A stretch of 64,000 nt of DNA from Heterotrichella gracilis. Taxonomy: Eukaryota; Sar; Xanthophyceae; Tribonematales; Xanthonemataceae. The notes below the pieces were generated by a model. That model had not been told where the DNA came from and made no database searches. It saw only the letters and a list, made by a program, of their open reading frames with translations. The stretch spans positions 1-64,000 of the forward strand of contig JAULBX010022741.1 in the NCBI GenBank assembly GCA_032358255.1, given 5' to 3'. This document shows, in pieces, positions 246 to 62,668 of this stretch; position 1 is the stretch's first letter; each line of letters begins with the position of its first letter. The position numbers and the translations under genes were made by a program.

Positions 246-2932
246 GCACTAGGCTGACATTCAGTAGAAGGGAGCATCTTCTTATGTCGGTCAATGGCTT
301 GGTGCTTGCCGAGCTAGCGGGGGGGACAGTCACCGACATGGGCACCATCGTCAACAGCGTGCTAGGTATGATCATTATTTTATCAGAAACAGTGTAACTA
401 GGCATGATCAGTAGGTCATGTGCAATTACAGACGTGTGCACCATCGTCAAGAGCGTGCTATGTATGATCAGTGTTGATCAGAAACAATGTCCTAGGCAGG
501 ATTAGATCGGATCACATGCAAGGTGTCGCCTGGGGTTGCATTCATCCCATTGATGTATACATACATGTGCCCTCGATGCTAGCAATACAGCATGACCACA
601 TGGGCTTACTTGTGCAAAGTCAGCAATGGGTATGATTCAGTACAGATTACAACTGCTCTTGCAAGGCGCCTGAACTGCATGGACACTCAGTATGGTGGTG
701 GGTCCATGGTTTGCATTGGTGGCTGATGCAGATTTTGTCCTTGCAGGTGCCTATGGCTTGCCACAGATGAAACAGGCAAAAGGGTTCCGCCTCTATGACG
801 AATTCAATGTCGACTACGAGTTCGAATACCCTAAGGGCTGGGTGGGGCGCAAGAACACCCTTCGGGAGGGGATATACATCAGCGATTTCAATGTACGGTC
901 TCATCGGGCGATGGAACGAGGTTGCAGGTCACACACATGGGGTGCATCCGATAAACAATGACCGCGCGCCATGCATCCCTGCCCTCACGAGCCGTAAGCA
1001 CATTGTTCCATGTGCATTGCTGTTCTCCTAGTGAAATCACCTTAGTGCATTGCGGTCATCAATGCTCTGGCAGATACAATGGTGCAACAGGACATTGCAT
1101 TGCTGTCATCTCATCCAGCCAGTCTCAGGCCCACTATGCTGACCTGGTTGAGGAGAAAGATTATCCATATGATTATGAGGAGAATTATGATCCTGAGCCG
1201 GCATATGCCCATTACAATGACCGTACATATCATTATGATGCATTTGCCAAGAGGAATGTAGAAGAAGCTGGTATCAACCGTGATAGTACGAGTGCACATG
1301 AACGAGTGCAAGTGCATGCACACACTGTTCTCACGCAACATGCACTCTTAGTAGATAGGACGTCACCTTGGCCATGCACTCATCTGCACGAGAAGCAGAT
1401 TTAGCAAGCTCAAAGTGCAACATGCACCCCTTACCAGAGGTTGAAATTGATGACAAACCTAATGAGTTATCAATTACGTGCAAAAGGCATTTATACTCCT
1501 AATTGTTATCAATAGTTTTGTTTTGTAATACTAACATGTGTACTCACTGGCAGACAGCGGATCGAGCAAGCGTGGAGCAATTCCCAGCCAAGCAAAGCTA
1601 TGCTGCTGGAGGGGAGGAGCTGGTCGAGGAAGTGGTCAAGCGCCTGGTGGCACCAGGACAAGAGGTAATGCAAACATATGTAATCAAAATTTATAATGCC
1701 TGTTGCCATGGAGACCTGTTAGCTGGTGGGAGGGGTGCACATTGTGGGCCCCGGCAACTCTCCTGTTTATTTTTAACAGCACGATGTATGATGCGTGGTT
1801 TGTGCTGGGTGTAGGTTGGAGGCAATGCAAGGCTAGAGCTGCCGCCGGCGAGCAGAATCAAGGTCGAAACTGCAGAATTCAATGGGCAGGTCAGTGGAAA
1901 AAGCCCTGGTTTGGGGTTTGCCAACCTGCCTGGTGTATGCACCCCATCAAGCGGATGATGTCTCTAACTGAGCTGAGCTGGCAAGCATAGGAATGCACGT
2001 TGCTGATTATTTTCCGCCACAATCCCCTGGGGCGCGAATCTTGCTTTCGAGCGGGAATGCATGTTTTGTGTACAACGTCTCAGCTGGTGGTCGGGGTTCG
2101 TGGAAAAGGTATCTGAGATCGCCATCGTGTGGTTACGTGTGCCTTTCCTCCCCTGCAGCTGTACACCTACATCACATTCCCCTCTGAGACCATCACCCGC
2201 AGCGGATACCAGGTGCGGCGCAAGAACTTTGCTGTGGCGGCCATCAAGCGAGGGACGGTCTACAGCCTGGTGGCCAGGTGAGGATCACCCCAAAACCTAA
2301 CCAGAAACCCTAGACAGGAGGTCTGCTGTGACGGCCATGAAGCAAAGTGCGGTGTACAGCCCTGGTGCCTGGTGAGGTTCTCCTAAATCCTAAATCCTAG
2401 GCGCGACCCTATACAGGGGCGGTACACAGCCTGATTGCTAGATGAGATGCTCATTTGAATGTGCTTGCTAGATGAGATGCTCATTTGAATGTGCTTTGCT
2501 TTTCTTGCCATGTCTCCACTGACAGGACTCGGTGCTGCCTGTGCACACATGGCAAGTAAAGCCACATTTTTAAATGAGCATGTCACCTAGCAATCAAGCT
2601 GTGACGGGCCGCGTACATGCATGGCTGCGTCAACACTGCCCTCCGGCTGCAGTTTTGCTGCCATGTTTGCTTTCCAGTGAATGGGAAGCAATGGACCCTG
2701 CACATGTGGTATTGCAATTACGCGAACAGGGTAGGGGGGCAACCCCCCTGCAAAAAATTGAAGAAATATGAGCGGTGGTCCACTGTGGCGCACATTAAGG
2801 AGTGTCCTTTTGCAATATGTGGGCCAGTGCTGACTGCTGTTCTTGTGTTTTTGCAGCGCCCGCAGTGACCAGTTCAACCCTGAGAAGGGTTTACTGCTGC
2901 AGCACATCGTCGAGTCGTTCAGGGTGAGGTGA
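246..2932 (+). CDS. PsbP-domain thylakoid-lumen protein (5' end missing)
   Basis: Exons read as 246-365, 747-892, 1554-1664, 1815-1889, 2159-2277 and 2857-2932, all with GT-AG junctions and matching phases. The first readable exon has a twin-arginine stretch (SRREHLLMS) followed by a hydrophobic/Ala segment, as in a Tat-type lumen-transfer signal. Then comes a PsbP fold: FRLYDEFNVDYEFEYPKGW, SDFNTADRASVE, a GGEELVEEVVKRLV helix, a strand pair around YTYITFPSETITRSGY, and a C-terminal VESFRVR. Members of this family are lumenal factors of photosystem assembly or electron transport; which PPD subgroup this is I cannot say. The upstream transit-peptide exon lies before 246 and is unresolved. Intron 892-1554 contains an open Tyr/Asp-rich stretch that I did not join. 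Exon 5 is followed by decayed copies of its own end. Confidence 0.85.
2320..2496 (+). repeat. Decayed copies of PsbP-gene exon 5 edge plus a 30-bp direct repeat
   Basis: 2320-2380 repeats the end of exon 5 with its donor (parent about 2226-2285: same ACGGCCAT..AAG, GTGTACAGCC and GGTGAGG words). A shorter third copy lies at about 2421-2445. It runs into a two-unit direct repeat with a period of 30 (GCTAGATGAGATGCTCATTT at about 2437 and 2467). Confidence 0.75.
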
Positions 2933-10400: not shown

Positions 10401-10668
10401 GACCACAGTGGACTACTCTAATTATCCACCTGAAACCCTAGAAGGCATGCATGGTATACCCAGCAAACCAGCACGCGTGATGAATTTGTGAGATATGGTG
10501 CTACCCAACGTACTTGATTCGCCACCCCAGGATGGCAAAGTAGACCGCCACGTAGCCAAAGGTCTGGAATTGCGCCAGAAAGAACACATAGTCAGACAGC
10601 GGCACCAGAGCCATCTTGTACAGCACGCGATTGGTGATGCCCGTCACCATCACAGCTGCTATGCTCCC
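7441..10668 (-). CDS. CLT: CRT-like plastid-envelope transporter (CLT family), first exon unresolved
   Basis: Exons in transcript order: 10668-10514, 10082-9958, 9632-9475, 9145-8990, 8547-8463, 8193-8062 and 7661-7441, 343 residues. The drug/metabolite-transporter fold is plain: NRVLYKMALVPLSDYVFFLA, FGYVAVYFAIL, AIGAFEAASQLLG, YAFVFLASMIFPALATIFKE, GKQLDLFVVNSFGSASQ, SGAPLLPMVYVVMN and VVTSLVMSAMVPLTVLAFT. These match plant chloroquine-resistance-transporter-like proteins, which move glutathione and gamma-glutamylcysteine across the plastid envelope. Intron 4 (8548-8989) appears to start with GC (CAG|GCGAGT). The N-terminal transit-peptide exon should lie between 10669 and about 11600 but I could not fix it. 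Two introns hold decayed copies of neighbouring exons (9287-9352, about 10290-10405). Confidence 0.88.
9287..9352 (-). repeat. Decayed copy of a CLT exon 3' edge inside the next intron
   Basis: About 65 bp match 9472-9537 in the same orientation (AAACACCGA(C/T)TGCG, CCTGGCGCCG, TGCCACACACACGCC). The copy lies downstream in the transcript and its frame is broken. Confidence 0.75.
10290..10405 (-). repeat. Decayed copy of the first resolved CLT exon in its downstream intron
   Basis: Read on the minus strand this gives KMAMVLLSD and later AAWRI, parallel to KMALVPLSD and LGWRI of the true exon 10514-10668, with the middle shortened. At DNA level the words ATTCGCCAC, CCGACAGC/CAGACAGC and GCCATCTTG line up. 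Confidence 0.55.
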
Positions 10669-14190: not shown

Positions 14191-14281
14191 CGGTCATGTA
14201 GAGGTTACACATGCACAGGCTAGGTATTTTACAAATAACAGCTAGCAGCCAAGTTTATCAAAGGTTTGCTCAACACAGATG

Positions 14282-19700: not shown

Positions 19701-22700
19701 TTCCACCAATACAAGTGGCAATGCCACTGTTTGGTTCATGATGCCTTATTTTCCATCTTAATTTCTTGAAATTGCATATTCCCTATGCATCTCCCAGATC
19801 TTCAGGCGCAGCAGGTGTAGACGCCATTCTACTGCTCATGCCTAGACATAAGACATAGGTTTCCCGCGCCATTTTCTGTAAATTGCCTCTATTGTCTGCG
19901 CCCAGATTTCCCGTCAGAGCTACCCGCCCCTGAGCCCATGCCCTCCACCGACGCCAAGGAAGCCGAGGAGCTCATCCTGATGGTGGGCCAGTACACCGCC
20001 TGTGCGCTGTACAGCAAGAACTGGCAGCTGCGGGAAGCGGCTGTGCTGCGGATCAGCCGTGCGGTGGGCAAGAAAACCCTAGCGGAGGGTCCTGATGAGG
20101 TGCTGCGGGTGCTGACGCGCACCATCACGCGCTGCCTGAGGGACAAGGTGGCCAACGTGTTCACAGGTAACTCTCTTTAGGGTGTAGGGTCTAGGGTTTT
20201 AAGGTCTGTACGGCAAGAACTGGCGGCTGCGGGAAAGCCGCGCGGTGGGCAAGAAAACCCTAGCGGAGGGTCCTGATGAGGTGCTGCGGGTGCTGACACG
20301 CACCATCACGCGCTGCCTGAGGGACAAGGTGGCCAATGTGTTCACAGGTAATTGGCATCAGGCTGAGGGCAGCTACAGTCATATGAAGGTAGAGAATGCA
20401 CGAGGTCATCACCAACTTTCGGGGATCTGACTTCCTCTGCACATATTTATAATGCCGCTGCGTGCCCCACGCAGGTGGTCTGCAGCTGCTGCGGCAGTTG
20501 GTTGAGGGCTATGGGCGCTCCGCCCCCGCCCGCGACCTGCACCACTGCGTGCTGGAGGTGGCTCCGCTGTTGACAGAAAAGGCAGGGGAGGCCAATGCCA
20601 AGTTCCGTGAGGCGTCCACAGAATCCCTGGTGTACCTTGCGGGGGTGAAGGAGGCGGGGCTGGGGGCAGCAACCGCGGTCTTCCTGCGGCAGCCCAGCAA
20701 GGTGGGTTGGGTATGCGTGGAGTGGGTAGGTTCAGGGCCTAGGAATTGGGAGGGGTCAGGGCCCTGCCAGGCCAAATCTGGGTGTTGCAAGAGAAAAGGG
20801 GAACTGATGGTAAGCTCCGTGAGGTGTCCACAGAGGCCCTGGGGGAAGCAACTGCTGTCTTCTTGCGCCAGCTGAGCAAAATGTGTCCCTCTATTCAGCA
20901 TATTCACATTTACATTTTTGCGCTGCTGAGTGGGACAGAATCAGAATTAAATCATGCTCTACACTGCAAAGCCGGACATTGACTTTGATGTCGCTGAATT
21001 TCACAAAAATGGTGCAGAACCAGAGCGTGTGGCGCCCCGTGCTGTGCCGCCTCCAACTCCTCCAAGCCCTGCTGCCAGTCAGTGGAGCCAGCACCGTAAT
21101 ACATGTACAAGTTTGCATCACAAAATGGCACAGTTTCAGAAAAGTACCATGCTCTACATCATACAATCAGTCCATTGACATCAATTTGGCTAAAATTTGG
21201 TGCAGAACCAGAGCGCGTGGCGCCCCGTGCTTGGTCGCTTGCAGCTCCTTCAGGCGCTGCTGCCAGTCATTGGGGTCAGCCGGGGGGGCGAGGCGGGCTT
21301 TGGCATTGAGCCGCTGATGGCATTTGTTGGGACCGCTTTTGGCAGTGCCAACCAGGATGTGCGCGCGACTGCTGTAAAGGTCACCCTGCAGGTGGGTTGG
21401 GTTCTTGAAGTCGAGGATTAAATCTTAGTCGCGAAGATCCAGGCACAATCAATTGAAACTGCGATTGCAATCCCAGTCCACTGCTTGCCACTTCGCATTT
21501 GGCTGGGTAATGTTGTGGTACCCACAGCTGCCTTGCTCCCCTCTTCCCAAAAGATGTTTGGACAGCGGGCCCCTCGGTGCGGCGCCGCCTCCCCACCGGC
21601 CTCAACCTCGAGATCAAAGAGCAGCCAAGCAGGACGACTCGTTTGTATGACTTCGGCATTTTGAATATATTTGCGACATAATTATCAACTGCGGCCTTTC
21701 CATTTCTAGGTGTTTGAGATGGCGGGCCCCTCGGTGCGGCGCCACCTGCCCCCCGACCTCAACCCCAAGATCAAGGAGCAGCTAGACAGCGCCATGGCCT
21801 CAAGCCTCCCAGTGGATGACAGGCCGCTGCCGCCACCGCCACGTCAGCCAGCCTCACTACCGGTGCGTGTTAAAACTGCTTTATTTGTGTATTTATTGCT
21901 TAAAACCTAATGTGGCTAATATCCGGAATTTATATACATTTGTGTTTCCCCCTTGCTACCCCTTGCCACAGCTCGGTTCTGCATGCGCTCGTAGACGATG
22001 GTGAGGACGGGGACGTTTGTGCACCCACCCACATTAGTTAGTTAGTTTAGTTACATGCATTCCAGCAATACAGCCAGATTAGCAGTCGGTCTTGCACATG
22101 CGGCGCCACGCAGCACTTTCCTGGCACCCACCCACATAGCCACAGCCAATGCGCATGGCATTCTCAGCAGCCCCCGTCCCCAGCATATCCCCAGTGATTG
22201 CACATGACCTCCCCAACATGTTCGCCATCCCCATCTCACCTTGCACTCTGCATGCATGCAGGCTCCACCCCCCCCCCGCCGGAAATCGCAAACAGAGACC
22301 CCGCCGGCGCCCAAGCCTGCCACCAAGCCGCCCAAGCACTCACCACCCGCTCGGCCACCTCCCTCAGGTGGGGTCGCCAGGGTTTAAGGGTTTAGGGATA
22401 GGGGACCCAGTGGCGCAGGCTCCACGCATGCTTTTGCGTATGCCCATGCAGGCAGCCTTGGGGATCACCCATCCACGCACCTTTTCCCGCAGCCCTCACC
22501 GCCCCCTTGCCCCCTCCACCCAGCCACCAATGCAAACCCGCACATGCTTGCCCTCAACCCCCCCTACACACATGCAACCTCTCCCCCTTTGGTTCGGAAC
22601 CCACACCAACCCACCCACCCACCCACCCCTGCAGCCCCCGCGCCCCCACCCACCCACTCCGACCTACCCAAACCCAAAACCCTTAAACTAAACCCTAACC

Positions 22701-23870
22701 CCACCCACCCTTGCAGCCCCCGCGCCCCCCCAGCACACCTACTCCGACCTCCCAGATGACCCAGCCCTACTTGAAGCTGACCTCAGTGCCAAGCGGGGTG
22801 CCTTGGGCCCCGACCATCCCGACACAGTTGCAGCCATGAGCAGCCTCGCCAATGTGCTGGGTCAAGCAGGGGACTACGAGCGGGCAGAGGGGCTGTTCCG
22901 ACAGGTGGGTTAAGGAGGGATTTATAGGCATTTTTGGGGGTGTTTTGGGGGCTGCTGGGAGGATTTTTCTGTGGGGTGGTGGGCGTGAATTTAGGGGCGG
23001 GCTGGGTTCCGACAACCTTTGAGACAGGTGTGGCAATGAGCGGCCTGGCCAATGTGTTGGGGCAAGGGGGAGACTATGAGTGGACAGAGGGGCTCTTCCG
23101 CCAAGTGGGTTAAGCAGGGATCTGTTGCCCAACTCGGGGCATTCTGGGCTGCTGGGGATGGTTGGGGGATCTAGCTTATCGACCCCATCACCATATCGGG
23201 GCACATTGAGCAACCAGGCTATTGGTAGACACCGCACATCTGCATGTTGAGGCAAGAAGTTATCAACTAGATATTAGGTTTGTCAGCTAATCAATGCAAA
23301 AAACGGTTGATTTATTAGGCTATTATCGATTTGTTGTTTCCTCCCTGTTCCTGCAGGTTGTGACCCAGTATGAGCGGTCAGCTGGCCCAGGCAGCCTGGA
23401 GGCGGCGCAGGCACTCACTGACCTGGCTGTCATTCTGTTTGAGCAGGTGCGGAAAAGACCCAGGGTTTGGCTTTTAGGGTTTAGGGTTTGGGGTTTGGGG
23501 TTCTGCCTGGTTGCTGACCGACCTGGCTATCATACTGGTTGAGCAGGTGGGACGGGGAGGATTGGGGGGGTGAGGTTTACGGTGTAGGGTTCAAAGTTGA
23601 AGGTTTAGGGTTTGGGGTTCAGCCTGCAAGTGGACTGACCTGGTTGTCACTGTACACTGATCCTGTGCATGGATTGCAGGTACCAGCCCTTTACCACCCT
23701 GCCCTGAAAATCTCACCCCAACCTTCCAACCCTGACCCTAAACCCTTGTGCAGGGTCGAGATGACGAGGGCCGGCCGCTGCTTGAGCGCGCGCTGGTCAT
23801 CCAGGAGCGGGAGCTTGGCCCAGACCACGAGGATGTGCAGGCAATACGGGACGTGCTGGACAGCGAGTGA
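16715..23870 (+). CDS. CEP104: CEP104/FAP256 ciliary-tip protein with C-terminal TPR block
   Basis: Sixteen exons: 16715-16786, 16865-16932, 17018-17105, 17329-17550, 18063-18314, 18505-18612, 18949-19198, 19418-19624, 19906-20166, 20475-20701, 21206-21391, 21710-21862, 22262-22367, 22717-22904, 23357-23446 and 23754-23870. They give 864 residues. Residues 1-160 are the jelly-roll domain (SRGWQSPR, FCQYPVELIVKL, NKFNIYNQ). 205-285 are the coiled-coil repeats (EDYDEAKRLKQ, EDYDAAKTLKQ). About 430-690 are the tubulin-binding TOG domain, and 735-864 kinesin-light-chain-type TPRs (GPDHPDTVAAMSSLANVLG, GPDHEDVQ). CEP104 tracks microtubule plus ends and caps ciliary tips. The usual C-terminal zinc fingers are not seen. 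Introns carry many copies of adjacent exon edges. Confidence 0.9.
18386..18870 (+). repeat. CEP104 intronic repeats: decayed exon 6 edge and a GGCTGATCACATG minisatellite
   Basis: 18386-18420 repeats the acceptor and start of exon 6 (ACAGGAGGT.GAGC.GTTGAA). 18652-18782 holds about ten units of 13-14 bp around GGCTGATCACATGC, with variants TGATTACATG; a further unit or two lies near 18845-18870. Confidence 0.8.
20205..21090 (+). repeat. Copies of three CEP104 TOG exons in adjacent introns
   Basis: 20205-20350 nearly repeats the end of exon 9 with its donor (parent about 20010-20172), with one internal deletion. 20808-20882 repeats the end of exon 10 (CGTGAGG.GTCCACAGA, GCCAGC..AGCAA) with a deletion. 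21005-21090 repeats the acceptor and start of exon 11 and keeps its frame (NQSVWRPVLCRLQLLQALLP versus NQSAWRPVLGRLQLLQALLP). Confidence 0.85.
21556..23675 (+). repeat. Copies of CEP104 exons 12, 14 and 15 edges
   Basis: 21556-21640 is a decayed copy of the start of exon 12 (GCGGGCCCCTCGGTGCGGCG). 22630-22690 copies the acceptor side of exon 14 (GCAGCCCCCGCGCCCCC). 23029-23112 copies its end (GACTATGAG.GG.CAGAGG). 23506-23550 and about 23630-23675 copy the end of exon 15 (GACCTGGCT, GAGCAGGTG). CCCTAAA-type words separate several of them. Confidence 0.8.
22030..22125 (-). repeat. Dispersed short repeat, copy 1
   Basis: Minus strand: GCGTGGCGCCGCATGTGCAA, then CTGGCTGTATTGCTGGAATG, then ACTAACTAACTAA. 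Same family at 30095-30165 (-), 31800-31885 (+), 38016-38080 (-), 47940-48025 (+), 50915-50965 (-) and 62185-62275 (+). I detect no coding capacity. Confidence 0.75.
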
Positions 23871-40100: not shown

Positions 40101-42482
40101 TACATGGAGCTGGAGGTAGGATTTTGGCCAGGGTCTTGGCCAGGGGGTACTCTTGCTGTGTGCGCCTTGCTTAGGAATTAGGGTGTAGGGTTTTTGAGGT
40201 TGGGTAGGGTGAAAAGCGCGGGGGTTGAATAATGCCATGGTGGTTGTGCTGGATAATGACACAAAAGCGCTTGTGGAGGAGCAGGGACTGCCCGCCATTT
40301 ATATGGAGCTGGAGGTAGGGTTTTTGGCCAGGGTTTTTGTCAGGGCTTCTCTTGCAATGTACACCTTGCTTAGGAATTAGGGTGTAGGGTTTTGAGGTTG
40401 GGTAGGGTGAAATGCACGAGCTGGAGGTAGGGATTTGGCCAGGGTTTGGGCAAGGGTATCATTGTATCTGCCCCGTGTGCTGTGTTGGGTTTGTTGGAGG
40501 TTCCATAGTTACCTGGCTATGTATCACTGCACATCCTTCACCCAGAAAGTAATGTTTGAAAAGCATGGACAAGCTTAACATTAAGTTTGGTATTGCGCGT
40601 TTATCTTGCAACGGGACCATGTATACCCATGTACTTGCATCCCCCCCCCTTCTTCTGCAGATACCCGACTCCCAAAAGGGAACCGGCAGCAACCATGCTG
40701 TGTCAGCGCTCAAGTTCCGCATCCTTCGCCAGTTCCTGCAGCTAGGGTAAGGCCAGGGTTGGCTAGGGTAGTGGTAGAGTCCGTCAGGGTGTGGCTAGGA
40801 TTGGTTGCTGGCGCCAGTCATGTGGGGCAGCCTGCGGGTGGGATTGCATTGCTGGAAGGCATGTTTCAACTCAAGTAGGGGTCGAAATCCCCTGGTATGT
40901 CTGGCACATCCCAGAATTTTTCAGGGTTTAGGGTTTAGGCCCTGATGACATGGGCATTGCCTTGCACCATTCCACTTCTGCTGAGGGTTAGCGTTCAGGG
41001 ACTGATTGTTCCGGCAATGCCTTGCACAGCCCCGCTGCTTTTTCCTCCTCCCCAGGAAGGGCGTGCTGCTGTCTGATGTAGTAACCTCCAAAACCCTTCA
41101 GAACCCCCCAAAACCCTCTCACGGGTATGGCGTGCTGCTGTCTGACGTGGATGTGGTCACCCTCCAAAACCGTCCAAAACCCTTCAGAACCCCCCAAAAC
41201 CCTCCAAACCTCTCCCACAGGTATGGCGTGCTGCTGTCTGACGTGGATGTGGTCACTCTCCAAAACCCCTTCAACTTCCTGACGCGAGACAGCGACGTGG
41301 AGTCAATGAGCGATGGATGGGATAATTCGACTGCATACGGTGCGCCTGGTCCCATGCCTGTAGCTTGTGGTTTGTATTTAAGGGTTCAGGGTTTAAGCCC
41401 TCTTTCTATCCCGACCCAAACATGTGCAGTGGAACCAAAGCAGATGTACACGATCCAGATTGGGGCCGAGAAGTTCAAACCAAATCCAACTCCCTCATCA
41501 CAGGCTACATTGGTGTGGCGGACGATTCACACCAAGCACATGTTTGTTCCAGCCATAACTTTGACACAACTTAACACGATGCAAAGCCATTTTGCACAAA
41601 ATCTAAACCAATCCATTCCTCCATCGCAGGCTACAACGACGTGGCCGACGATCCCAGCATGGGCTGGGCCCGCTACGCACACTCCATGCGCGTGTTTGTG
41701 TTCAATTCGGGCCTGTTCTACCTGCGCCCCACCCAGGCAGCCTTGGACCTCCTGGATATGGTGGTGCACAGGGTGGAGACTGAGGCTGGGTGGGACCAAG
41801 CGATATTTAACGAGGCCATTTTCTTCCCCTCGCACCTTGGCTACAAGGTGAGGATACAATAATACACACAATTGAAATATGTGGCATATCTAAATGAGCG
41901 TAGTGAAAGTGCATATTTACAAGATTACGAGATTCATAGAGCCAGCCCGGGCTAATTAAATAGATATATTAAATATAGAAATGTGATATGCTGATGAAAT
42001 ATATTTTCTTATTTGTCCCCTCGCACCTACAAGGCAAAGCGGTGATGTACTGGTGCAAAATGGGTACATGGGGGGCCAAACATAGAGTATTGCTGGACCA
42101 CATGCTCTTCATGAACCCTAAAGTGCTGTTCAAGACCCCGCACGGCCGTGAGTCGGGCTACGCCACCCACACCCCCATTTTCACCCGTGATCGCCCCCAT
42201 TCCACCCCCAATTTCATCTCGGGAACCCCATTTCTATCCACATTGCCCCCAAATGCGCAGGATCCATCCGTGACCCGCCGCGTGCTCGACTACATGCTCT
42301 TCATGAATTCCAAGGTGCTCTTCAAGACTGTGCGCCATGACTCGCGCTACGCCACCCACACCCCCGCCATGGTGCACATCAACTACCACCCCGACAAGCA
42401 CGCGCGCATGAAGGCGGTGGTGGAGCGATACGTGAATGGGGATGTGCATGCGCTGGACAAATTCCCAGACGGGTCGCAATGA
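34139..42482 (+). CDS. RRA: RRA-like arabinosyltransferase (GT77), Golgi type II membrane protein
   Basis: Thirteen exons: 34139-34357, 34488-34553, 34788-34940, 35275-35337, 35592-35654, 36090-36197, 36484-36635, 38925-39243, 39727-39918, 40661-40746, 41221-41339, 41630-41847 and 42261-42482, 659 residues. Residues 27-49 form a signal anchor ([20 protein letters not shown]). 50-290 form a coiled-coil stem. 290-330 is a Cys/Pro linker ([15 protein letters not shown]). 385-659 is the GT77 domain: [31 protein letters not shown], the DxD strand [66 protein letters not shown] and [12 protein letters not shown]. Plant RRA enzymes add arabinose to hydroxyproline-rich wall glycoproteins. The long stem is unusual. 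Exon 37546-37609 is an alternative terminating exon. Confidence 0.9.
35680..35890 (+). repeat. RRA intron: about 100-bp repeat units rich in TTTAGGG words
   Basis: TTGCTGCTACAAGCTGCATGCA, TGAGGCTATA and GGGTT.A..GTTTAGG recur two to three times. This is an intron-only tandem array. Confidence 0.6.
37546..37609 (+). other. RRA: Alternative or relic terminating exon of the RRA gene
   Basis: It has a good acceptor (GTGTGGTGCAG) in the same phase as the true exon 8 (38925). It encodes [21 protein letters not shown] and then TAA, parallel to [16 protein letters not shown] and the following Cys/Pro motif of the true exon. Splicing to it would give a protein of about 295 residues with membrane anchor and stem but no catalytic domain. 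It could be a real isoform switch or a dead exon copy. Confidence 0.55.
38016..38080 (-). repeat. Dispersed short repeat, copy 4
   Basis: Minus strand: GAGTGCTCATCTGGCTGCAT, TGCTGGAACGCATGTGAGTA. It lies in the RRA intron between the alternative and true exon 8. Confidence 0.65.
39340..39402 (+). repeat. Decayed copy of RRA exon 8 end
   Basis: CCCCACCTGGATG.AAAGGGCAATGCTGAGCTGGCG matches 39190-39230 and is again followed by AAGGTGG. The intervening 39260-39350 is a GTT/GGT trinucleotide-rich stretch. Confidence 0.85.
40000..40440 (+). repeat. Two or three further copies of the RRA exon 9 end, period about 190 bp
   Basis: About 40004-40125 and 40198-40325 repeat 39810-39930 (ATGGTGGTTG, GCGCTTGTGGAGGAGCAGGG, ATGGAGCTGGAGGTAGG) with small indels that break the frame. 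40405-40445 is a shorter remnant. Intron sequence after the donor is included in the unit. Confidence 0.9.
41050..41170 (+). repeat. Two upstream copies of the RRA DxD exon start
   Basis: 41057-41090 and 41117-41165 repeat the first 35-50 bp of exon 11 (GGCGTGCTGCTGTCTGA.GT). They are separated by AACCCTCCAAAACCC-type spacers. The middle copy keeps the DVDVVT frame but has lost the AG acceptor. Confidence 0.85.
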
Positions 42483-42800
42483 GGAGGGCTGGGCTGGCAG
42501 CACTCACAGTCGCTGGTTTCTTGGGGATGGCAATATGAAGAGGGATGCGCATGCGCTGGACAGATTCCCAGATGGGTCGCAGTGAGGAGGGCTGGGGGCT
42601 AGGGGTTTTCTAATATGGGATTCTTGAATTCCAAGGTGCTGTTAAGACAGTGCGTCACAATTCGCGCTACTGGTCGCAGTGAGGAGGGCTGGTCTGGCTG
42701 CACCCATAGGCGCTGGCTTTTTGGGGGGAGGGCGTTTTTGAAGGGGGGCATGCCTGCGCTGGACAAATCCCCAGATGGGTGGCAGGAGGAGGGCTGGGGG
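41498..42800 (+). repeat. Copies of RRA exon 12 start, exon 13 middle and stop-codon region
   Basis: 41498-41560 is a decayed copy of the exon 12 acceptor side (CATC.CAGGCTACA). 42080-42185 is a diverged copy of the exon 13 middle ([13 protein letters not shown] versus [13 protein letters not shown]). 42530-42600, 42615-42700 and 42740-42800 are copies of the C-terminal coding end with TCGCAGTGAGGAGGGCTGG, lying in the 3' UTR. Confidence 0.85.
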
Positions 42801-44628: not shown

Positions 44629-47600
44629 ATGCTGGTCCCCAAGGGCGAACCTACGAAATGGCAGAGGTTCCATATGATTTGGGTGAGTGGCAACTCTCTG
44701 TGAGCTGTGGTTTGGGCAGTTCTGGCGGTACCCGCATGTTGACTCAACCCTAGGTTTCTTTTGATCACTCGGCCTCCGGGAAGTTACGGAGGTTTATCCA
44801 CTCGAGAGTCGTTTGTTTTGACTCGGATTTTTTGCTAGGATAACTCATTTGACCCGGCTGCGCTTGTATAAGTGGATGAAGGAGTTGAACCTAGGTTAAA
44901 ATGGTACAGTTTGAGGACACCCTAGGGGGCCTGTGGTGGGGTGGGTGGGAGTACAAAGGTTCAAAAGCGCGTTGTGAGGTGACTGCTTGTTCTTTTTCTC
45001 GATAGCGGGTGTTAGAGGGGTGTTAGGGTGGAGGAAGCAAGAACGTGGGCGGTGGGTGGGTGGGGTGGGGTGGGTGTTTTTTAGAACACCGACCCACCAT
45101 GGCACCTCACCTGCTTTTAGGTTGGTGCGTCACCAGTGGGCTGACAGAGAGCCCGCAAGCCGTCCCTTCGTTTGCAAACGCAAGGCCCTAGCCTGGGTAT
45201 CCTATCCTGGGTATCGAGCCACATATAGATGGTCTCCTAAGAACCCTACCTAAACCCTAAACCCTTAATTCAGCCACCTGAGGCCATCTGGTCCAACCCA
45301 TGTAGGTTGTGGTTGGCGTGCTGACTCTGGCTATTATGGGCGGCGCCCAGCTGTCAGTGCCTGGGGCCTTTGCCTCTACCACAATACAAAATACCCGGCT
45401 TGCACTTAATTATAATCCCCCCTATTCCACGGCTGACTTGCAAAAGTTTGTACATGCAATCATCAGCACTAAGCACCTGAGGTCAGCGGTGCGATTCCAT
45501 GTAGATTGTGGTGGGGGTGCTGACCCTGGCTATCATGGGTGGTGCCCAGCTGCCAGTGCCTGGGGACTTTGCCTCTACCGGAGTGATTGTCGCATCTGTG
45601 CTGATGGTGGTTGTGGCAATCTTCAATAGCTACACCTCTGACATGCTGTGCTGGCAGGTGGGTGGGTGGGTGGTGGGGATGTGCTGTGCTGGCAGGTGGG
45701 TGAGTGGTGGCGATGTGATGGTTTGTCTATGGGTCGCGTTCTCCCTTCTCCTTCCTATGGGGTGAGGTGAGTAAGTGAGGTTGGAGGAAGGATTGGCTTT
45801 GTTTCTAATAGTCATGCGGCAGCCTCCAAGTACATATCCAACGTGCTTTGTCTCTTCGCTTGATCCTCTTCCTTGACCAATGCGCATGTTCAAGGACAGG
45901 CTGCGTAGATATTTGCGTAGATATTTGTTTATTTATCTAATATTATTATTATTATTTTATTTATACAACAATTTTGGTTCAGGTGGGTAGGCACCAGGCC
46001 GTGTGTACCCAGGCCTATGGCATTGAGAGCCGCTTGACTATGAGGCCGTAAACCCTAAACCCTAAAGCCCTGACCTCCGTTGGTGATGTCCCGCAGGCGT
46101 ACTACACCGGGCGCGTTGACTACGAAACCCTAGGGTACGCCATAGGGGGGCGCGGATGGCAGCTGGTGGTGGAGATCTCGAGCTTCATCCTGCTCATGGG
46201 CACACTGGTAAGAATTCCCTGGCTAGGGTTCAGGCAACCCATGTAGGGTTTAGGGATTAGGTGGCAGCGGGTGGTGGAGATTCCCACATGTATCCTGCTC
46301 ATGGGCACACTAGTAAGAAGACTTTCAGCCTTGCGATGATAATCCTGTCGATTTCATTGGAAAACGTCATTGCTGTCTGTGTGTGTTAATGCTGGATAAG
46401 CCGGATGTTTGGACTAATCTTGCTTTGCGGCAAACTTCTTCAGGTGAGCGCCATCCAGCAAATTGGGGAGGTGTGGTCCGCTGGCCTGCTTGTGTTTTCC
46501 GAGAACATGCCTGAGTGGCTGGTAGGGCGCAGTGGAACCGCGCTCATGGTGTTTGGCACCATTGCCTGCATCCCATTCGTCTTCATCACATCGCTGTCAG
46601 CGGTATGTGGCTGGATACCCTTAAACCCTGAGGAGTTTGATTGGCTCACTCCTAACCCCTAATTAACACGTAAACTCTAAATCGTAAACCTGTAGGCCCA
46701 CCCCGGGCTGGTGGTGCTTGTGGTGTTTTGCGCCCACACCCTAAACCCTAGCAGGGTATCCTGCCTAGGTTCTGCGGGCAGTACCGTGCACTCATGGTGT
46801 TTGGCACCATCGCCTGCATCCCATGTGTCTTCATCACTTCCCTGTCAGCGGCGAGTGCAGGGGGTGTGCTTGACCACAGATCATGCACATCTAACTAACC
46901 CTAATTGCGTGCAATTTACAGGTGGTTACATGATTTGCAACTCTTGTACATTTGCTGCCCTTGTGATGTCTGTCAAAATGGGCGTGCTGGTCAGCAATGC
47001 TGCCGTCCTGCACCAGACACTGACCAACTCCCCCCCCCCCTCCCACCGCCTAGCTTGAGCAAGCAGGCAATGCAGGCATCGTCATCGTGCTGGTGTCAAC
47101 CTGCTGGCTATTGGGCACAGCTGTGGCAATTCTCACTACCAAATAATTGCAATATAAAAGTTTCAAATCACACAGAAAGGACTCACCAAGACCCCTATTC
47201 ACAAAAAGCAATTGGTATAAACCACCAGACACTGACTTACAATCCCCCTCCCACCCCCCGCAGCTTGAGCAGGCAGGCAATGCAGGCATCATTATCGTGC
47301 TGGTGTCCACTTTCTGGCTTGTGGGCAGGTCCTGCCAGCTTGGATTACCCTACCTTGGGGTTGAGGGCGAGTTTGAAATCGTGGGCTTCACCAGCCCAGC
47401 AAATGTGGTGTCGGTGGTGTCGAGCTTCGGCTTCATTTTCTTCATCCAGCCCATCATGGTGAGTTTTGCCTTTTTTCTAAGCCATTTACTCTAAAGATTT
47501 AGTATTATTGTTATTAATTCTCTGACGAACGGAACATGGTCTCCACGCATGGACTCGGCCATCAAGGGAGTCTCTCAACCGATGCGCTTGCCTACTCTAA

Positions 47601-50600
47601 ATAATAGGTTTATAAGAATTAAAATGATATTGAGTACACAGGGTGGCTCAGGAAACCCGTAGCTATGAATGTACCCTAGAACAGTTAATTGTTCATCCTC
47701 AATTTACACCTCACCCCCCTGACTTGATCCCCAAACTGCAACAGATGCCGATGCTAGCTGAGATGCCACCTGGCAAAACCGGGGTGAGGCTGCTGTCCCT
47801 GGGGACCAGCATCACCATCATGGGTGAGTTGCCTTAACACCAAACCCTAAACCCTAAACCGGTAACCCTGGCTATAGATGTCTTTACCTTGGGGACCTCA
47901 AGTTGCATGGAATCAACAGATGGTTCAAACAGTGCCAGGATAGAGCTGCGTGGCACCGCATGTGCAAGACTCACTGCTCCTCTGGCTGTATTGCTGGAAT
48001 GCTTGTAACCAACTAACTAACCTCTGTGTGGCCCCAGATGCGCCCAACATAAGTATAAAATGATATACGCAGTTGCAAAAGCTTGTATGAATGAGCTGGC
48101 ACGCATGTGTACCGAAGTGCATTGTTCCGTCAGCAGATCACGCGGAAAACAACCCTCCCCTGACCCTGACCCATTGAACAAATCATTAAATGCAATCCCA
48201 AATCCCCATTCCTCTATCCCAGGAACCTCATTCGCAGTGTACTACCTGTGCGGATTCTTTGGCGCAGCAGCGTTTGGCCAGGCTGCGGTGGACACAGGCA
48301 ACTTTTTGGAGAATGACCTGGGTGGCGGGGTGGCACTGGGAGTGATGCAGATGTTCTTTGTCTGTGAGTATGACAGGCCATTTGGGCAGGAGGACAATTA
48401 AAGTTCCAAAGTCCTTCCTGACTTGGGTTCCATTTGGAGGTTGTTGTAAGGGTTTTAGGGGTACTAGGGTCCTTCACATGGCTTGTTTTTAGGGCTTTGG
48501 GGTTCTTATATTCCACTTTGCAAGTACCTACAAACCATGAAACAGGTCCCCTGGAGCGTGCAACAGACTTTGAGGCCCATACCTAGGGGATGGCCTGTGG
48601 AAGGGGGTAGCCGACAGAGTGATGTAGACGCATGTGGTTGTTATGAGCTTGACAGCTGCATGTGGTGATGCGGCGGGGCGGTTGTACCCCCTGCACCCTC
48701 CATAACGCACACTACACCAACCCTAACCGCCCGTCCCTTGCCCTCCCCTCCCCCAGTGTACCTCCTCGTGTCGCTGCCCCCCTTTGAGTACGGCACCCGC
48801 CACGCCCTCGACTCCTTTGTAATGAGCTTCTGCACAGACCTCACCAAGACAACTGGCTTCCCTGCATGGCTGAGGAACCACTACCGCATCCGCCAAGCGG
48901 TGCTGGCAGCCATCCTCTACACAGTGTCCCTGGGACTGGCGGTGCTCTTCCCTGGAAAATCTGACGTGGTGCGTAGTCAAAACCCTATACCCTTGGAGGT
49001 TGTGGTTGATAACCCTACCATAGGGCTTGAGGAGGGGTTTGTGAATGCCTGGCAGTATTGGAAATGATTTGCAACTTCTGCCCCGGCTGGGGTATTACTC
49101 TGCTGGAAAATATAGTGGCACAGCGGGCTTTTGTGATCGCTATCGACAACTCTGGAATCCCCTGAATTGGCCCTTTGCTATCCTCAGGTGATCACTGTCA
49201 CTGGTATAGGGGTAGTCAGAACCCTAGAATAGGGCATAGGACGGATTTTTTTTGTGAGTGCCTGGCAGGGTTATTGTGAACTCTACAAAGTTGTCACCCT
49301 GACGGTTTTGCAATTGACGCCTGGCTGAGATAACGCTTCCGCCTGGGAATCCACATGGCGCAGCTGGCTTTTGTGATCCACAGGTTATTCACCATTGTTC
49401 AAATTTGAATCCCTTGAACTGGATTTTTGTTGTCTACAGGTGATCACCATCACTGGTGCGCTTGGGCGCTGGCATGGTGTGCTACATCATCCCAGTCATT
49501 AACCCTAAATTGTAATCCTAAATCAAGCCAACTCCACGTGGCACAGCTGGCTGTTGTGATCTCCTGGTGATCACCATCATGACATTTTATATCCCTGAAA
49601 TGTCGTTTTTCATCCCCAGGTGATCACCATCACTGGTGCGTTGGGCGCGGGCATGGTGTGCTACATCATCCCAGTCATTAACCACTACATGCTACTCAAG
49701 GGCTGGTGCGGAAAAACCCTAGGAACCCACAACAAACCCTTGCATACCCTAATACCGGCAACGGGATGCGCTGCATCATCCACATGCTACTGAAATGCTG
49801 GTGCGCAACAAACCCTAGCAAACCGCACAAAATCCTTGCATGCCCTAGCATACATGGTTTTGCGACATTATCCCAATCATCAGCCACTGCAAAGCTACTC
49901 CTGAATGTGCACAGCCAATGGTTGCAACCGCCAAGCGGTCATGCGCGATGGTGCGTGGATCTGGCCCTGTCTGTCTGTCTGTCAAGCGGGGATGCTGCAT
50001 GCATGTGGCTATTCAACCCCTAGCCTATCCTTCATTGCTTCACTTGAATTGCTTGAAACCCATGCTGACTCACCCAACCCCTGTTTTTGGCCTGGGATCC
50101 ATCGCCTTGCCACCCCACTTCCTGCCAAACCATGCGCACACAAGCCCAAACCCTCCCTGAATATGACCACATCCGAGAGCAAAACCAAACCCTACACCAA
50201 ACCCTATACCAAACCCCCAACCCTTCTTCCGCAGAGCCCTGTGCCAGCGCGATCCCAAGGCCCTGCTCAAATTCAAAAACCTGAAGAGGAAATCCCTCAC
50301 GTGGCCATGCCCGACCACGCGGTGCCTGAAAAACCCTAAACAAAGCCCTAAATCTCTCCCACACCATGGCCATACCAGATCACCTTGTGCCCAGAAACTT
50401 ACACCAAACCCTAAGCTCAAAACCCCTAACCCTTCTCCCGCAGGGCCCTGTGCCAGCGGGACCCCAAGGCCCTGCTCAAATTCGAAAATCTGAAGAGGAA
50501 CTCCCTCACCATGGCCATGCCCGAGCACGCATTGCCCGAAAAAGCGCCAAGTGTCGCCGAGGAGCTGGCACCAGGGGAGCTTGATATTGACCCCAATACC

Positions 50601-53694: not shown

Positions 53695-56600
53695 CTACAC
53701 CAGGCCGAACCACCTGCCCACAAACAGGTTGTAGGTGGCCTCCACTGGGCGAAGCACCCTGGCCAGGCCCATGTACTCCAGTGCCCTCCCGCCTATCACG
53801 CCCCCCTGGGACCGCTGCGCCTGCGCGTGCAGGCAGCCACAGGCGAGTCAGTACACAGTACACACCCTTTTTGATGTTGACAAGGCGGTGCATGTGCATG
53901 TGCACGCGGTTCTGCTCATGCAGCGCACAGGTTGCGCCACCTGCATGCATTTCTTTTGCGCAGAGCGCACAAAAGCAACACGGCCACCATGCTCCTGGAC
54001 AAGCCCTACCCAGCTGTTGTGGCAGAAGCAACACGGCCATACAACCCACACCCACCACCAACCCCATGCACCCTCCATCTCGTGCACCATGGGCAGCAAC
54101 ACACCCAACCACACATGGGGGCTGATGATGTACCCGCAGCTTGGCTCCCCCCAGAAAACAACCCCAGGCACCCACTGCCGGCCCCTTCACCCCCAGCAAA
54201 GGCGCACCGCGAACAACACCGTGCCACGGCATGGCCTCCTAAATTACCCCAAACCCAAACCCTAAAACCCTGCAGCCTGAAAGCCTGCATACCCCACCTC
54301 GTGCATCAGACCAACAACACATCCAACTCATAGATTAACCCAAACCCTAAACCCTAAACCCCTGCGCCTCACCTCGTGCATCATGAGCAGCAGCACGTCC
54401 ACCTCACACATAAACCTAAACCCTAAACCCCAGATCCTAAACCCTAAAACCCTGCGCCTCACCTCGTGCATCATGAGCAGGAGCACGTCCACCTCATAGA
54501 TAAACCCAAACCCTAAACCGTAAAAGGCAAACCCTAAATCTAAACCCTAAACCCCTGCGACTCACCTCGTGCATCATGAGCAGGAGCACATCCACCTCAT
54601 AGATAAACCGAAGCCCTAAACCCCAAACCCTAAACCCTAAACCCCCTCACCTCGTGCATCATGAGCAGCAGCACGTCCAGCAGTGCGTGGTGGTTGTTGA
54701 GTGACAGCAGCGCCTGCCCCCTCACCACCAGTGTGAAGGTGGGGGTGGTGGTGCCCAGCTCAAGCGCTAGCACAGCCAGTGCACCCTGCACATGTGAGGG
54801 TACCGTGAGCAGTAGCAGCTTACGTTGGCAACCACCATTGAAAGTGGAATGCTACAAGCATTTGGGTGGTTGTGTGCTTTTCTAAGTGACAGCAGCGCCT
54901 GGCCCCCCACTACCACCAGTGTGAAGGTGGGGGTGGGGGTGCCCAGCTCCAGGCCCAGCACAGCCAGGGCACCCTGCAGTGTAACACAAGCGGAAATGCA
55001 ACCAGTTGGGCGTCCACAGGGATGGTCAATGCTGCACGGAGGCGGGCTAAACAGCGGAGGCGCTAGGAGCAGGGGACAGAGACTTTACAGGCGGCAGGTA
55101 CAGGGGACTTTACGCCGGTTTGCATTGCGCGCTACATTTCCACCTCAGCTTCAATTTCCTTACAACTCAGCTGTACAGCTGGCACGCATGTCAACTGAGC
55201 GTTACCTTGGGTAGCGTAGGCGGCCTGGCGGGTAGAATGGCTGTGAACACCTCGGGGGTGCGTGGGGGGAGGGTGCCCAAGTACAGGGGGCCGCCTTGGG
55301 AGGGGGGCGGGGGGGAGCCGTCCAGCGGGAAATGCCACTGGGGGGCCTCCAGGTAGGCGCAAAACAGGTAGAGTAACAGGGCGGAATCTGTGGGGAGGTC
55401 GGGGGACCAGGGCCTGCAAAATGGGTACAATATGATGATGTTCAAAATACAAAATAAAGGCAAAATCATAATGGTCATCTGCGCAGCATAGCTGAAGTAA
55501 TAGGGCGGAATCTGTGGGGAGGCCGGGGGACCAGGGCCTGCAAGATAGTTGCAAAATGATAATAAAAATACAAAACAATGACAAAATCATGCTTGCCGTT
55601 GTGATACATTTCCTACCCCAAATGTATCCATAAGCACAATTTGAAGTAACAAAACGGGGGAATGCTTATATTCATCCGACGCCAATGATTAAAATACGAA
55701 GGAGCGGGATCTCACTACAGCTAAAAGCAGGGATGAAAGGGCGAGAAGCGACGAGCCACAACACAGGAGGACGGCAAGTTGCAGAATACCGACACAACAT
55801 GCATACATTTACACCCTCTATGGAAAGGAGGAGAACTAGGCTCCCACCCCCACCCCATGAGACATAGGTAGAATAAGGATAGCAGCAAAGGAGCACCTCG
55901 CCCACCTGTCCACCCCTGTGCCCTCTCCTTAGCATTCAGGCATGATTAGGGACTGGCCCGCCCACATGCCACCCTGGTCAGGGATTTATGTTCAGGGTTT
56001 AGGGTTTAGCGCGCGCACCTGCCCGTCCACCTGCCCCCCCCGTTCCATGTGAAGGCCGTGAGGCAGGAACCCTCCGCAAGGGTTTTCGTGCGGGAGATGA
56101 GGTAGCCCCGGGGTGCGGGGGGGAGGAGGCCCCTGGGGGAGTCTCCACGCAGGAGGGCTGCCAGGTGGGCATAGGTGGTCACTGCCTGCAGGAAGCGTAT
56201 CAAAAAGTTGAAAAAAAAATGTATTTCTGTAATTGCCAAATGTACCTTGCTACCATAGACACTTTCGTTTCCGTTTCTTGTAAGAAATAGAAGGTAATGA
56301 ATAATGCCCAGCTTCCTCGGCATCTCATTTGCCCAGAGCTTCACGTTTGGACAAGCGAGTTAACAGCGCTGGGCAGCTTGGGAAATTCCACTTATCTTCA
56401 GGAGCACTTCGTGGCAGTGCAACAGTGTATTGTCCCCACAGGCAGGGTGGGTTGCACAGCATGGAATGTATACCATTCTATACCATAATCCCTAAACCCT
56501 AATCCCACCTCCAGGCACTTGATGGCGTTGGCCTGCAGCGGCCCCGCAGCCAGGGTGGGCAGCCGAGCCAGGATCTCCTCCCGTAACCGCTGCACAATGG

Positions 56601-60468: not shown

Positions 60469-61353
60469 TGTGACGAGTGTAGGTTCAATCTGACTTCACA
60501 CACTGACACCCATAGTTGAAAAGCCTGAGTGCTTGGGCCTCTACTGGTCCAAGTGATGAACATGCGACACTTTTTGGCAGTGCATCAACTGCTTCGCAAC
60601 GAACCACCCCTAACAGATCTCAGTGAGCTGCGGCGAGTACAAACCCCCCAGGACCTTATGTACAACGTTTGCACAAGCTGCGTTCGTAAGCGTTTGCCAG
60701 ACGAACTACAGTTTGTACGAGCCTACCAGAACTGCTGTGACGTTTTGCATGCATATATGCATGCATCACGCGTCATGTTGTCGTAGGGTTTTTGAAGGGG
60801 AAACCCTCGCCGTGACATGGCATAAAAGTTTGGAAGGTGCAAGTTGATCCACAAGAGGGTCCATAAGAGTATGCTCGCAACTAATGGCAACAAAGGGTTT
60901 CCAGTTCACACTTCACGTTTCTCCAGCAAGCGATACGTTGTTGCGCGGGTGCATGCATGTCACCATCTTCAACCCACCAGCATAACAATTCTGCCAAGCG
61001 TTCTTCGGACAGGTGAATAAGACAAGCCTTCCTGCCTTCAGTTCATCCACAGACTAGATCAGGTTTGGCCACAAGGTGTCACTGTTTAAGCTTGTTTGGG
61101 TTGATCTACTGTACTTGGCCGCCACGATCTGAACTTGCGATGTATAAGCAACCACATGCGGTCAGAGTTGGAGGCAACGGGACGCTCATCTCCGGCTTAA
61201 CGTGCTGACGGCGTCCTTATTGTGAAGTAGTGGTCTCCCAAGCCTGTAGTGCCGCAGTTGCAATATGATAAACCTTAAAAGAGCAAGCTTGACTGCAGGT
61301 CGAACCCATCTCCAGATCCTGAACCCATCTCCAGTTGATCAAGAACGCTCAAG
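60469..61353. other. Divergent promoter region, TMEM209 and APRT
   Basis: Contains no supported exon and no clear motif. GCATGCATATATGCATGCAT near 60747 is a local palindrome. Confidence 0.4.
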
Positions 61354-62668
61354 ATGACTATACTATCCAATTCAGACAAACTGAAGGTAGGGAGGTTTGG
61401 TGTGCCAGATACAAACAGCACCCGCGTTGCCATCCTGCTGACTGCCTGTTGCTTTGCCATCCAGCGTTGCCATCCATCTAACTGCCTGGCGCGATGCCAA
61501 GCAACTAAATGCCTCTTGCACTGCGCAGTTTGTGTCAGACTCTATTGGCACTGTCCCAGACTTCCCCAAGCCAGGCATCATGTTCTATGATGTACAGACC
61601 ATCCTGCTCAACCCCACAGCCTTCCAGTACTCACTGGATCTCCTAACGGAACGGTACAAGGACGTGCAAATAGACGCGATTGCAGGTAGCTATGGCCTCC
61701 GTTCTATATCCTTATCTTGGTTGTGAGTGGCTGGCTGGTTGTGCCTGGCTGATGGGGTGTATTATATGCATTGCTTGATTCACCCTACTGCCATGTCTGC
61801 TTATGTGCACTGGCAAACGGTGCGGGGGCAGGCATGATGTGTAAATAGTATTTTGACAGTGTCATGGTTTCACATGCCGCCTTTGAGGCCTGTGGCTTTG
61901 TGTTTGGTCCACCACTGGCTGATGGGATTGATTACATTTATTTTAAGCTTTTAAAAAGCATTTTGACAGCGTCATGGTTTCACGTGCAGCCTTTGAGGCT
62001 CGTGGCTTTGTGTTTGGCGCACCCCTGGCCCTCGCGCTTGGTGTCCCATTCATAATGCTTCGCAAGCCAGGAAAATTGCCAGGTGAGCTCAAGGATTTCT
62101 TACCTTCAAGCATGGTTTTGGAGCAATGTTCACAAATCGGGTGTACCATGGCAAATGCAAATGAACATGGGAAAGTAGATGCTATTTAGCATGCTGCTTG
62201 GCGGCGCTGTTTGGTGCAACACTGTCTGCAAATCTGGCTGTCTTGCTGGAAAGCATGTTACTAGCTAACTAATTCATTGTGGTATTTGTCTATGGCTTTT
62301 TAATTCGGGTGAGAGGAGCTCCCAGGGATGGCTACGGCGCTGCCGCCTTTGTTGATTACATATCTATCTATCTATCAAATAATCAATTGGGGTGTGCAGG
62401 TGCTACTATCAGCGCGGACTACATCACCGAGTACAGCACTGACTCCATCCACATGAAAGTGGACGCTGTCAAGGCCGGAGACAAGGTGCTGTTGGTGGAT
62501 GACCTCGTTGCAACAGGCGGCACGCTGGCTGCAGGGGCGGCCCTGATTAGGAAAGCGGGCGGTGTCATTGTGGAGGCTGCGTGTGTCATTGAGCTGCCAG
62601 AGTTGAGCGGGCGCAGCAAGATACCCAACATCACTCTTTACACCTTGATTGAGAAGGAGGGTGCATGA
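61354..62668 (+). CDS. APRT: Adenine phosphoribosyltransferase
   Basis: Exons 61354-61386, 61529-61685, 61990-62082 and 62400-62668 give 183 residues, the normal family length. It converts adenine and PRPP to AMP (purine salvage; in plants also cytokinin bases). Motifs: [11 protein letters not shown] near the N terminus, [27 protein letters not shown], and the PRPP loop [17 protein letters not shown], then [12 protein letters not shown]. It has no obvious targeting peptide ([19 protein letters not shown]), so it is probably cytosolic. Intron 2 carries a decayed copy of the start of exon 3. Confidence 0.92.
61853..61925 (+). repeat. Decayed copy of APRT exon 3 acceptor and start
   Basis: ATTTTGACAG.GTCATGGTTTCAC and CCTTTGAGGC, GTGGCTTTGTGTTTGG match 61963-62030. 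The copy's AG acceptor has become CC (CATGCCG), so it should not be spliced. Confidence 0.88.
62185..62275 (+). repeat. Dispersed short repeat, copy 7
   Basis: GCTTGGCGGCGCTGTTTGGT, CTGCAAATCTGGCTGTCTTG, AAGCATGTTACTAGCTAACT. It lies in APRT intron 3. Confidence 0.65.

What the first reader, a model, noticed from the sequence alone, without database searches (positions are those of the whole stretch)
2320..62030. Most genes carry truncated copies of their own exon edges in adjacent introns and 3' UTRs
At least 40 such copies are visible, in ten of the twelve genes (PsbP, CLT, bS18m, CEP104, uS2, ZIP, RRA, permease, TMEM209, APRT), which have no common function. Each copy is local, in the same orientation, 35-190 bp long, and usually spans a splice site or the stop codon, so the unit is genomic DNA and not spliced RNA. 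Ages vary from near-identical to barely recognisable. This looks like an active genome-wide process of short tandem duplication followed by decay, one that keeps making spare splice sites. I know of no standard name for it.
Basis: seen in the sequence. Interest (0 to 1): 0.88.

Follow-up and report, generated by a model that had tools for sequence, protein, structure and literature searches.

The report
Short local DNA copies in introns
This green-alga genome keeps making short same-strand copies of nearby DNA, often about 100 or 200 bases away, that then decay; exon ends stand out among them mainly because exons are short and the real exon is kept from changing.

Summary
The copies are real: 54 local direct pairs in the window (41 after collapsing arrays), none in shuffles. 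In 308.7 kb there are 142 direct pairs and no separated inverted pair of 35 bp or more. Identity is 68-97%.

Offsets favour about 85-125 and 165-215 bp, in the window and in other contigs separately. Most pairs (86 of 107) are copy-spacer-copy, with homology ending sharply.

The link to exon edges largely dissolves: 36 of 69 such pairs in predicted genes cross an edge; random shifting gives 31.0 +- 3.9. Non-coding pairs are about as dense in introns as all pairs outside predicted genes. A modest excess of exon-derived pairs remains. Source-copy mismatches by codon position (11.7, 8.5, 20.0%) fit a freely drifting copy beside a constrained source.

Best reading: local duplication by nick or break repair, a known kind (rice, vertebrates), here with unusual spacing. 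Telomere-like motifs are enriched in spacers (28 of 86 against 12.9 +- 3.1), unexplained. No ancestral sequence, RNA or reads were available; gene models are my own predictions.

The parts
26579..26668 (-). uS2 exon 3' edge (62 bp exon, 28 bp intron), source; exon 26607-26904
   Evidence: Pfam PF00318; 94% match to 26458-26546, offset 121
26458..26546 (-). truncated copy of the uS2 exon 3' edge in the next intron; spacer of 32 bp holds telomere-like motifs
26834..26939 (-). uS2 exon 5' edge, source
   Evidence: 81% match at offset 206, spacer 100 bp
27040..27144 (-). copy of the uS2 exon 5' edge in the upstream intron
20007..20170 (+). CEP104 exon 3' edge (source), copy at 20206-20351
   Evidence: 86%, offset 199; CEP104-like TOG domain
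20206..20351 (+). copy of the CEP104 exon 3' edge; the gene finder wrongly kept it as an exon
21183..21280 (+). CEP104 exon 5' edge (source), copy at 20997-21092
   Evidence: 82%, offset 186
22821..22921 (+). exon 3' edge (source, donor after 22904), copy at 23021-23121
   Evidence: 81%, offset 200
39812..40418 (+). three complete tandem copies, period 199
   Evidence: 89-91%
42433..42493 (+). stop-codon edge of the RRA-type gene (source), copies at 42536-42596 and 42739-42798
   Evidence: 90% and 84%
45474..45579 (+). permease exon 5' edge (source), copy at 45275-45380
   Evidence: 84%, offset 199
46157..46214 (+). permease exon 3' edge (source), copy at 46262-46319; spacer with telomere-like motifs
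   Evidence: 84%, offset 105
47223..47327 (+). permease exon 5' edge (source), copy at 47011-47117
   Evidence: 83%, offset 212
50400..50543 (+). exon 5' edge (source), copy at 50193-50333
   Evidence: 87%, offset 207
54236..54679 (-). tandem array of period about 91-103 in the TMEM209-type gene, rich in CCCTAAA
54700..54790 (-). TMEM209-type exon edge, paired with 54885-54978
   Evidence: 89%, offset 185; gene by PF09786
61952..62029 (+). APRT-type exon 5' edge, paired with 61842-61919
   Evidence: 87%, offset 110; gene by PF00156 in a later exon

Best explanation
The genome undergoes frequent local same-strand duplication of roughly 40-200 bp stretches. I infer that DNA synthesis that patches a nick, a break or a stalled fork re-copies a stretch lying about 100 or 200 bp back, leaving source-spacer-copy or, less often, a complete tandem copy. 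Ordinary selection then sorts the products: copies that land in introns, 3' flanks or intergenic DNA are tolerated and drift neutrally. A pair with one coding arm stays recognisable longer because only one arm drifts freely. As exons and introns are short, such pairs often cross an exon edge, giving the look of copied exon edges. Shown: existence, polarity, offset preference, sharp spacer structure, neutral-drift signature. Inferred: the repair step, and which arm is older where neither is coding.
For: Same strand only: 142 direct, 0 separated inverted pairs of 35 bp or more. Offsets fall off above about 225 bp; in rice, tandem duplications are 70% of insertions up to about 125 bp and 5% by 200 bp (passage). 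Homology stops sharply: 0.42-0.47 identity beyond the ends of 41 pairs, 0.44-0.46 in controls. Nine long spacers searched match only themselves plus two short local hits, so they look like ordinary local DNA. Codon-position mismatches 129/1103, 94/1101, 220/1101. Copy on the intron side of the source in 34 of 35 single-edge pairs (read), as selection would leave. Continuous identities, 68-97%.
Against: No ancestral or sister sequence, so no event was seen. Inverted templated insertions, known from break repair elsewhere, are missing here. Neither the lower nor the upper favoured offset is explained.
Confidence: 0.6

Rival explanations
1. Complete tandem duplications (fill-in of paired nicks) form first, and part of one copy is then lost by intron indels, leaving truncated copies.
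For: 21 of 107 collapsed pairs are abutting or overlapping tandem copies. Extra homology past the ends at z > 4 in 14 of 72 pairs, control 5 of 72 (two sides scored against one in the control). The final product would look the same as a jump-back copy.
Against: Of seven pairs at 91% identity or more, five show no extra homology on either side, which leaves little time for deletion.
Confidence: 0.2
2. The process is aimed at exons or splice sites, for instance coupled to transcription or splicing.
For: Pairs are denser in predicted genes than outside, 0.395 against 0.137 per kb. One-coding-arm pairs exceed expectation and also dominate among pairs of 87% or more, 13 against 7 non-coding. Arms reach further into exon than intron in 23 of 35, null fraction 0.47.
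Against: Edge crossing is close to random (36 of 69 against 31.0 +- 3.9; 32 of 48 against 0.52 +- 0.08). Non-coding pairs are no rarer outside predicted genes than in introns.
Confidence: 0.11
3. Telomerase or capture of telomere-like repeats at breaks makes the spacers, with the flanks duplicated at a staggered break.
For: Motif in 28 of 86 spacers against 12.9 +- 3.1, concentrated at inner junctions; motif 52-fold over chance in the window.
Against: The strand orientation expected of telomerase at two break ends was not seen (G-strand 8 and C-strand 16 pairs after the first arm, 7 and 14 before the second). 58 of 86 spacers have no motif. Introns with copies are richer in the motif even outside the arms, so the two may only share a place.
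Confidence: 0.05
4. Insertions of a mobile element or introner with very long target-site duplications.
For: Copy-spacer-copy resembles an element between target-site duplications.
Against: 28 long spacers share no sequence family in the sampled loci; 9 of them have no relatives in the assembly at E 0.01 (a search that skips simple and very common words).
Confidence: 0.02
5. Assembly stutter, or functional alternative exons.
For: A few pairs are 94-97% identical; the gene finder sometimes accepts copies as exons.
Against: Median identity is 82.6%, far from stutter. Pooled mismatches at codon positions 1-2 are about half those at position 3, as for one free copy; single pairs could differ.
Confidence: 0.02

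Closest known systems
Repair-mediated duplication by capture of proximal DNA (Pace et al. 2009, PMC2671141; abstract, passages and sections 6, 10, 14 seen)
   Same: Short local copies separated from the source by unrelated DNA (824 of 1,136 within 5 kb there), neutral fate, splice sites and exons among what is copied.
   Different: There cases within 50 bp were removed, copies average 162 bp, at least one exon copy is inverted; here the offsets favour 100 and 200 bp and no separated inverted copy of 35 bp or more was found.
Patch-repair tandem duplication in rice (PMC7971508, passages; it cites Vaughn and Bennetzen 2014 and Schiml et al. 2016, not read)
   Same: Same strand, 50-200 bp, sharp upper size limit, common.
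   Different: There the copies are tandem; here 86 of 107 pairs have a spacer.
Doublets, short paired duplications (Thomas et al. 2004; recalled, and cited; the paper is not held)
   Same: Same-strand pairs with favoured distances (recalled).
   Different: Favoured distances recalled there are under 100 bp and near 1 kb; here about 100 and 200 bp.
Interstitial telomeric sequences at repaired breaks (PMC2246262; start of abstract in a listing only)
   Same: Telomere-like repeats near presumed break sites.
   Different: No telomerase-like strand orientation here.

Membership tests
Proximal-capture repair duplication | Copy near its source, separated by other DNA | tested here: met
   86 of 107 collapsed pairs have a spacer of 5 bp or more; many spacers are below the 50 bp that Pace et al. 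required
Proximal-capture repair duplication | Empty site in a relative; microhomology, filler or deletion at breakpoints | not testable with these tools
   no related eukaryote genome held; no second haplotype for the two stretches tried
Patch-repair tandem duplication | Same-strand, below about 200 bp | tested here: met
Patch-repair tandem duplication | Copies abut head to tail over the whole period | tested here: not met
   met by 21 of 107 collapsed pairs only; sharp ends
Mobile element or introner | Inserted sequence belongs to a repeat family | tested here: not met
   28 spacers against sampled loci, 9 against the assembly
cDNA retrocopy | Spliced, intron-free copy | tested here: not met
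   single-edge arms carry 7-78 bp of intron beside the exon (35 pairs)
Functional exon duplication | Both copies under coding constraint | tested here: not met
   codon-position mismatches 11.7, 8.5, 20.0% pooled over 51 pairs
Telomerase healing of breaks | G-strand outward from each break end | tested here: not met

The most novel reading that the evidence does not exclude
A repair or replication process in this alga re-copies DNA at two favoured back-jump lengths (about 100 and 195 bp), on the same strand and often next to telomere-like G-rich motifs. The lengths would be a physical ruler, perhaps nucleosome or Okazaki-fragment spacing, written into the genome, and the process feeds introns with intact second splice sites fast enough to drive intron growth.
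Probability: 0.25. Interest if true: 0.7.

Novelty: new variant of a known kind. Interest (0 to 1): 0.42.

Why it matters
If the two favoured offsets hold genome-wide, they make it testable what sets the jump length in short local duplication. The copies also supply second donors and acceptors whose dinucleotides are mostly intact (31 of 35), raw material for alternative splicing, and they can mislead gene prediction: 26 of 418 predicted exons of 20 bp or more lay at least 90% inside repeat arms.

Tried and rejected
Whole-period tandem duplication as the general rule: set aside because of sharp homology ends and unrelated spacers, though kept as a rival. The first flank test was uninformative because alignments ran into the other copy. 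First gene-finder settings gave one absurd gene with 336 introns; stricter settings were used. Telomerase addition: predicted strand asymmetry not seen. Donor-side copies at offset 100 and acceptor-side copies at 200: suggested by the window, weak in the larger table (below 140 bp in 10 of 19 donor and 5 of 16 acceptor pairs). A gap in donor-side breakpoints (0 of 19 at 71-115 bp, null mean 5.5, P 0.0004) was picked after looking and is absent on the acceptor side (7 of 16); left unexplained. Second haplotype as ancestral state: none for two stretches. Rfam on the window: no match. Dust masking as the cause of few non-coding pairs: 69 pairs with, 71 without, in four loci. Literature: nothing on this pattern in algae among the listed results of searches (open-licence library; lists are capped).

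Full report
What the window is. The window lies in contig C228 of an unnamed 68.5 Mb, 903-contig assembly. A protein predicted in another contig (L024) has its best named matches in green algae: Chlamydomonas eustigma 64%, Tetradesmus obliquus 67%, Dunaliella salina 66%. The species is unknown. I wrote a small self-trained gene finder; it gives 11 genes and 121 introns in the window, without RNA support. Pfam supports CEP104 and uS2, S18, APRT type, RRA type and TMEM209 type.

The observation. Self-BLAST at E 1e-3 gives 54 direct pairs of 35 bp or more at offsets of 60-450 bp in the window, 41 after collapsing arrays. Dinucleotide shuffles give none. In 308.7 kb, the window plus 25 sampled stretches, there are 142 direct pairs. 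The 17 inverted hits of that length are all single self-palindromes, so separated inverted copies are 0; one separated inverted match of 32 bp exists (58956-58987/59168-59199), and short inverted k-mer matches in the other loci are somewhat above shuffles. Identity is 68-97%, median 82.6. Arms cover 12.8% of the window and 6.9% of 298.7 kb of alga-like loci. L003 (37% GC, no coding signal) was left out of densities. The window has 41 collapsed pairs in 64 kb, the other loci 66 in 234.7 kb, and 7 of 24 other loci have no copy-spacer-copy pair.

Two favoured offsets. A k-mer spectrum independent of BLAST peaks at lags 85-124 and 165-214 bp with a trough at 125-164. Per 10 bp of lag, for 85-124, 125-164, 165-214 and 215-264 bp, the window alone gives 8.25, 2.50, 8.00, 1.60; the other loci alone 11.5, 6.5, 9.6, 3.2; shuffles 0-0.4. 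The lower peak also takes in 65-84 (6.5 and 11.0), and very short lags of 15-44 are common too. BLAST pairs with a spacer give 30, 19, 42 and 10 in those bins; the trough is weak against the lower peak (binomial p 0.076) and clearer against the upper (0.024), and Silverman's test for one mode gives p 0.0065 on 99 pairs. Bins were set after seeing the first spectrum, so one search is a split check, not a blind one.

Copy-spacer-copy. Of 107 collapsed pairs, 86 have a spacer of 5 bp or more. For 41 pairs with spacers of about 60 bp or more, identity just outside the homology is 0.42-0.47, controls 0.44-0.46. A more tolerant test finds extra homology at z > 4 in 14 of 72 pairs; the control has 5 of 72, scored on one side rather than two. 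Of the seven pairs at 91% or more in that call, two show it and five do not. Nine of 28 long spacers were searched against the whole assembly and match themselves only, plus two short local hits; that search skips simple and very common words.

Exon edges. In predicted genes, after removing 26 of 418 predicted exons that lie inside repeat arms, 36 of 69 copy-spacer-copy pairs have an arm over an exon edge. Random shifting gives 31.0 +- 3.9, and 134 of 1000 shifts reach 36. The earlier version, with tandem pairs and without the removal, gave 54 of 83 against 43.7 +- 4.0. Coding arms cross an edge in 32 of 48, model 0.52 +- 0.08, and in 30 of 51, model 0.44-0.45. Arms reach further into exon than intron in 23 of 35 single-edge pairs, null fraction 0.47. 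Non-coding pairs number 16 in about 110 kb of intron (0.146 per kb); pairs of any kind outside predicted genes number 17 in about 124 kb (0.137 per kb), some perhaps in missed genes. Total density is higher in predicted genes than outside (0.395 against 0.137 per kb). My reading: geometry, slower divergence of coding sources and the need for copies to be non-coding explain most of the link; a residual preference for exons is not excluded.

Fate of the copies. In the 51 pairs with one coding arm, mismatches are 129 of 1103, 94 of 1101 and 220 of 1101 at codon positions 1, 2 and 3. One neutral copy beside a constrained source predicts about 1:1:2. The copy is on the intron side of its source in 34 of 35 single-edge pairs (read). 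Splice dinucleotides survive in 16 of 19 donor and 15 of 16 acceptor copies, about what drift at this divergence would leave. Spare splice sites therefore exist in sequence; their use is untested. In the window 26 of 84 introns hold 30 bp or more of repeat arm, median length 412 against 283.5 bp for the rest.

Telomere-like motifs. AAACCCTA occurs 81 times in the window against 1.56 expected. In 298.7 kb, nine-base windows of the CCCTAAA repeat number 909 against 15.8 in shuffles; clusters are 0.98 per kb in introns, 0.49 outside genes, 0.06 in coding sequence. They occur in 28 of 86 spacers, against 12.9 +- 3.1 (maximum 23 of 300 draws) in same-length non-coding segments of the same loci, and concentrate at the inner junctions. 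Introns with copies are richer in the motif even outside the arms (0.032 against 0.020), so part of this may be shared location. Strand orientation does not fit telomerase addition. G-rich sites that stall replication could be a common cause: in C. elegans such sites give deletions reaching 50-300 bp (passage). That is inference.

Mechanism and known kinds. Same-strand polarity, the size limit near 200 bp, ordinary-looking spacers and neutral copies point to local re-copying during nick or break repair. In rice, tandem duplications are the commonest insertions, enriched at 50-200 bp and attributed to repair of adjacent nicks (passages). In vertebrates, repair-mediated duplications capture proximal DNA (sections read). 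The present case shares features of both and fits neither fully: most copies do not abut, separated inverted copies are absent, and two offsets are favoured. I therefore call it a new variant of a known kind. What sets the offsets is not established.

Noticed in passing
window, e.g. 25225-25239, 26559-26586, 46050-46064, 54257-54639: Short telomere-like motifs (AAACCCTA and rotations) litter introns and intergenic DNA, about 50-fold over chance, and are nearly absent from coding sequence.
   Followed up: partly
window 22021-22127: A dispersed repeat of about 93 bp: 40 places at E 1e-10 listed, up to 98% identical, from 783 first-look candidates of which 39 were scored; further copies in the window near 30110, 31800, 38020, 47930 and 62190.
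   Followed up: no
window 63565-63631, 2462-2596, 37462-37607; 14 more in sampled loci: Self-palindromes of 35-179 bp (69-97% complementary), 17 in 308.7 kb.
   Followed up: no
L007 4371-4484: A second dispersed repeat of about 90-115 bp with many relatives at 75-86% in the assembly.
   Followed up: no
L003 (G000:C1:10001-20000): Contig C1 (894 kb) has 37% GC, no coding signal under the algal model and no local pairs; perhaps another organism or an organelle or bacterial contig.
   Followed up: no
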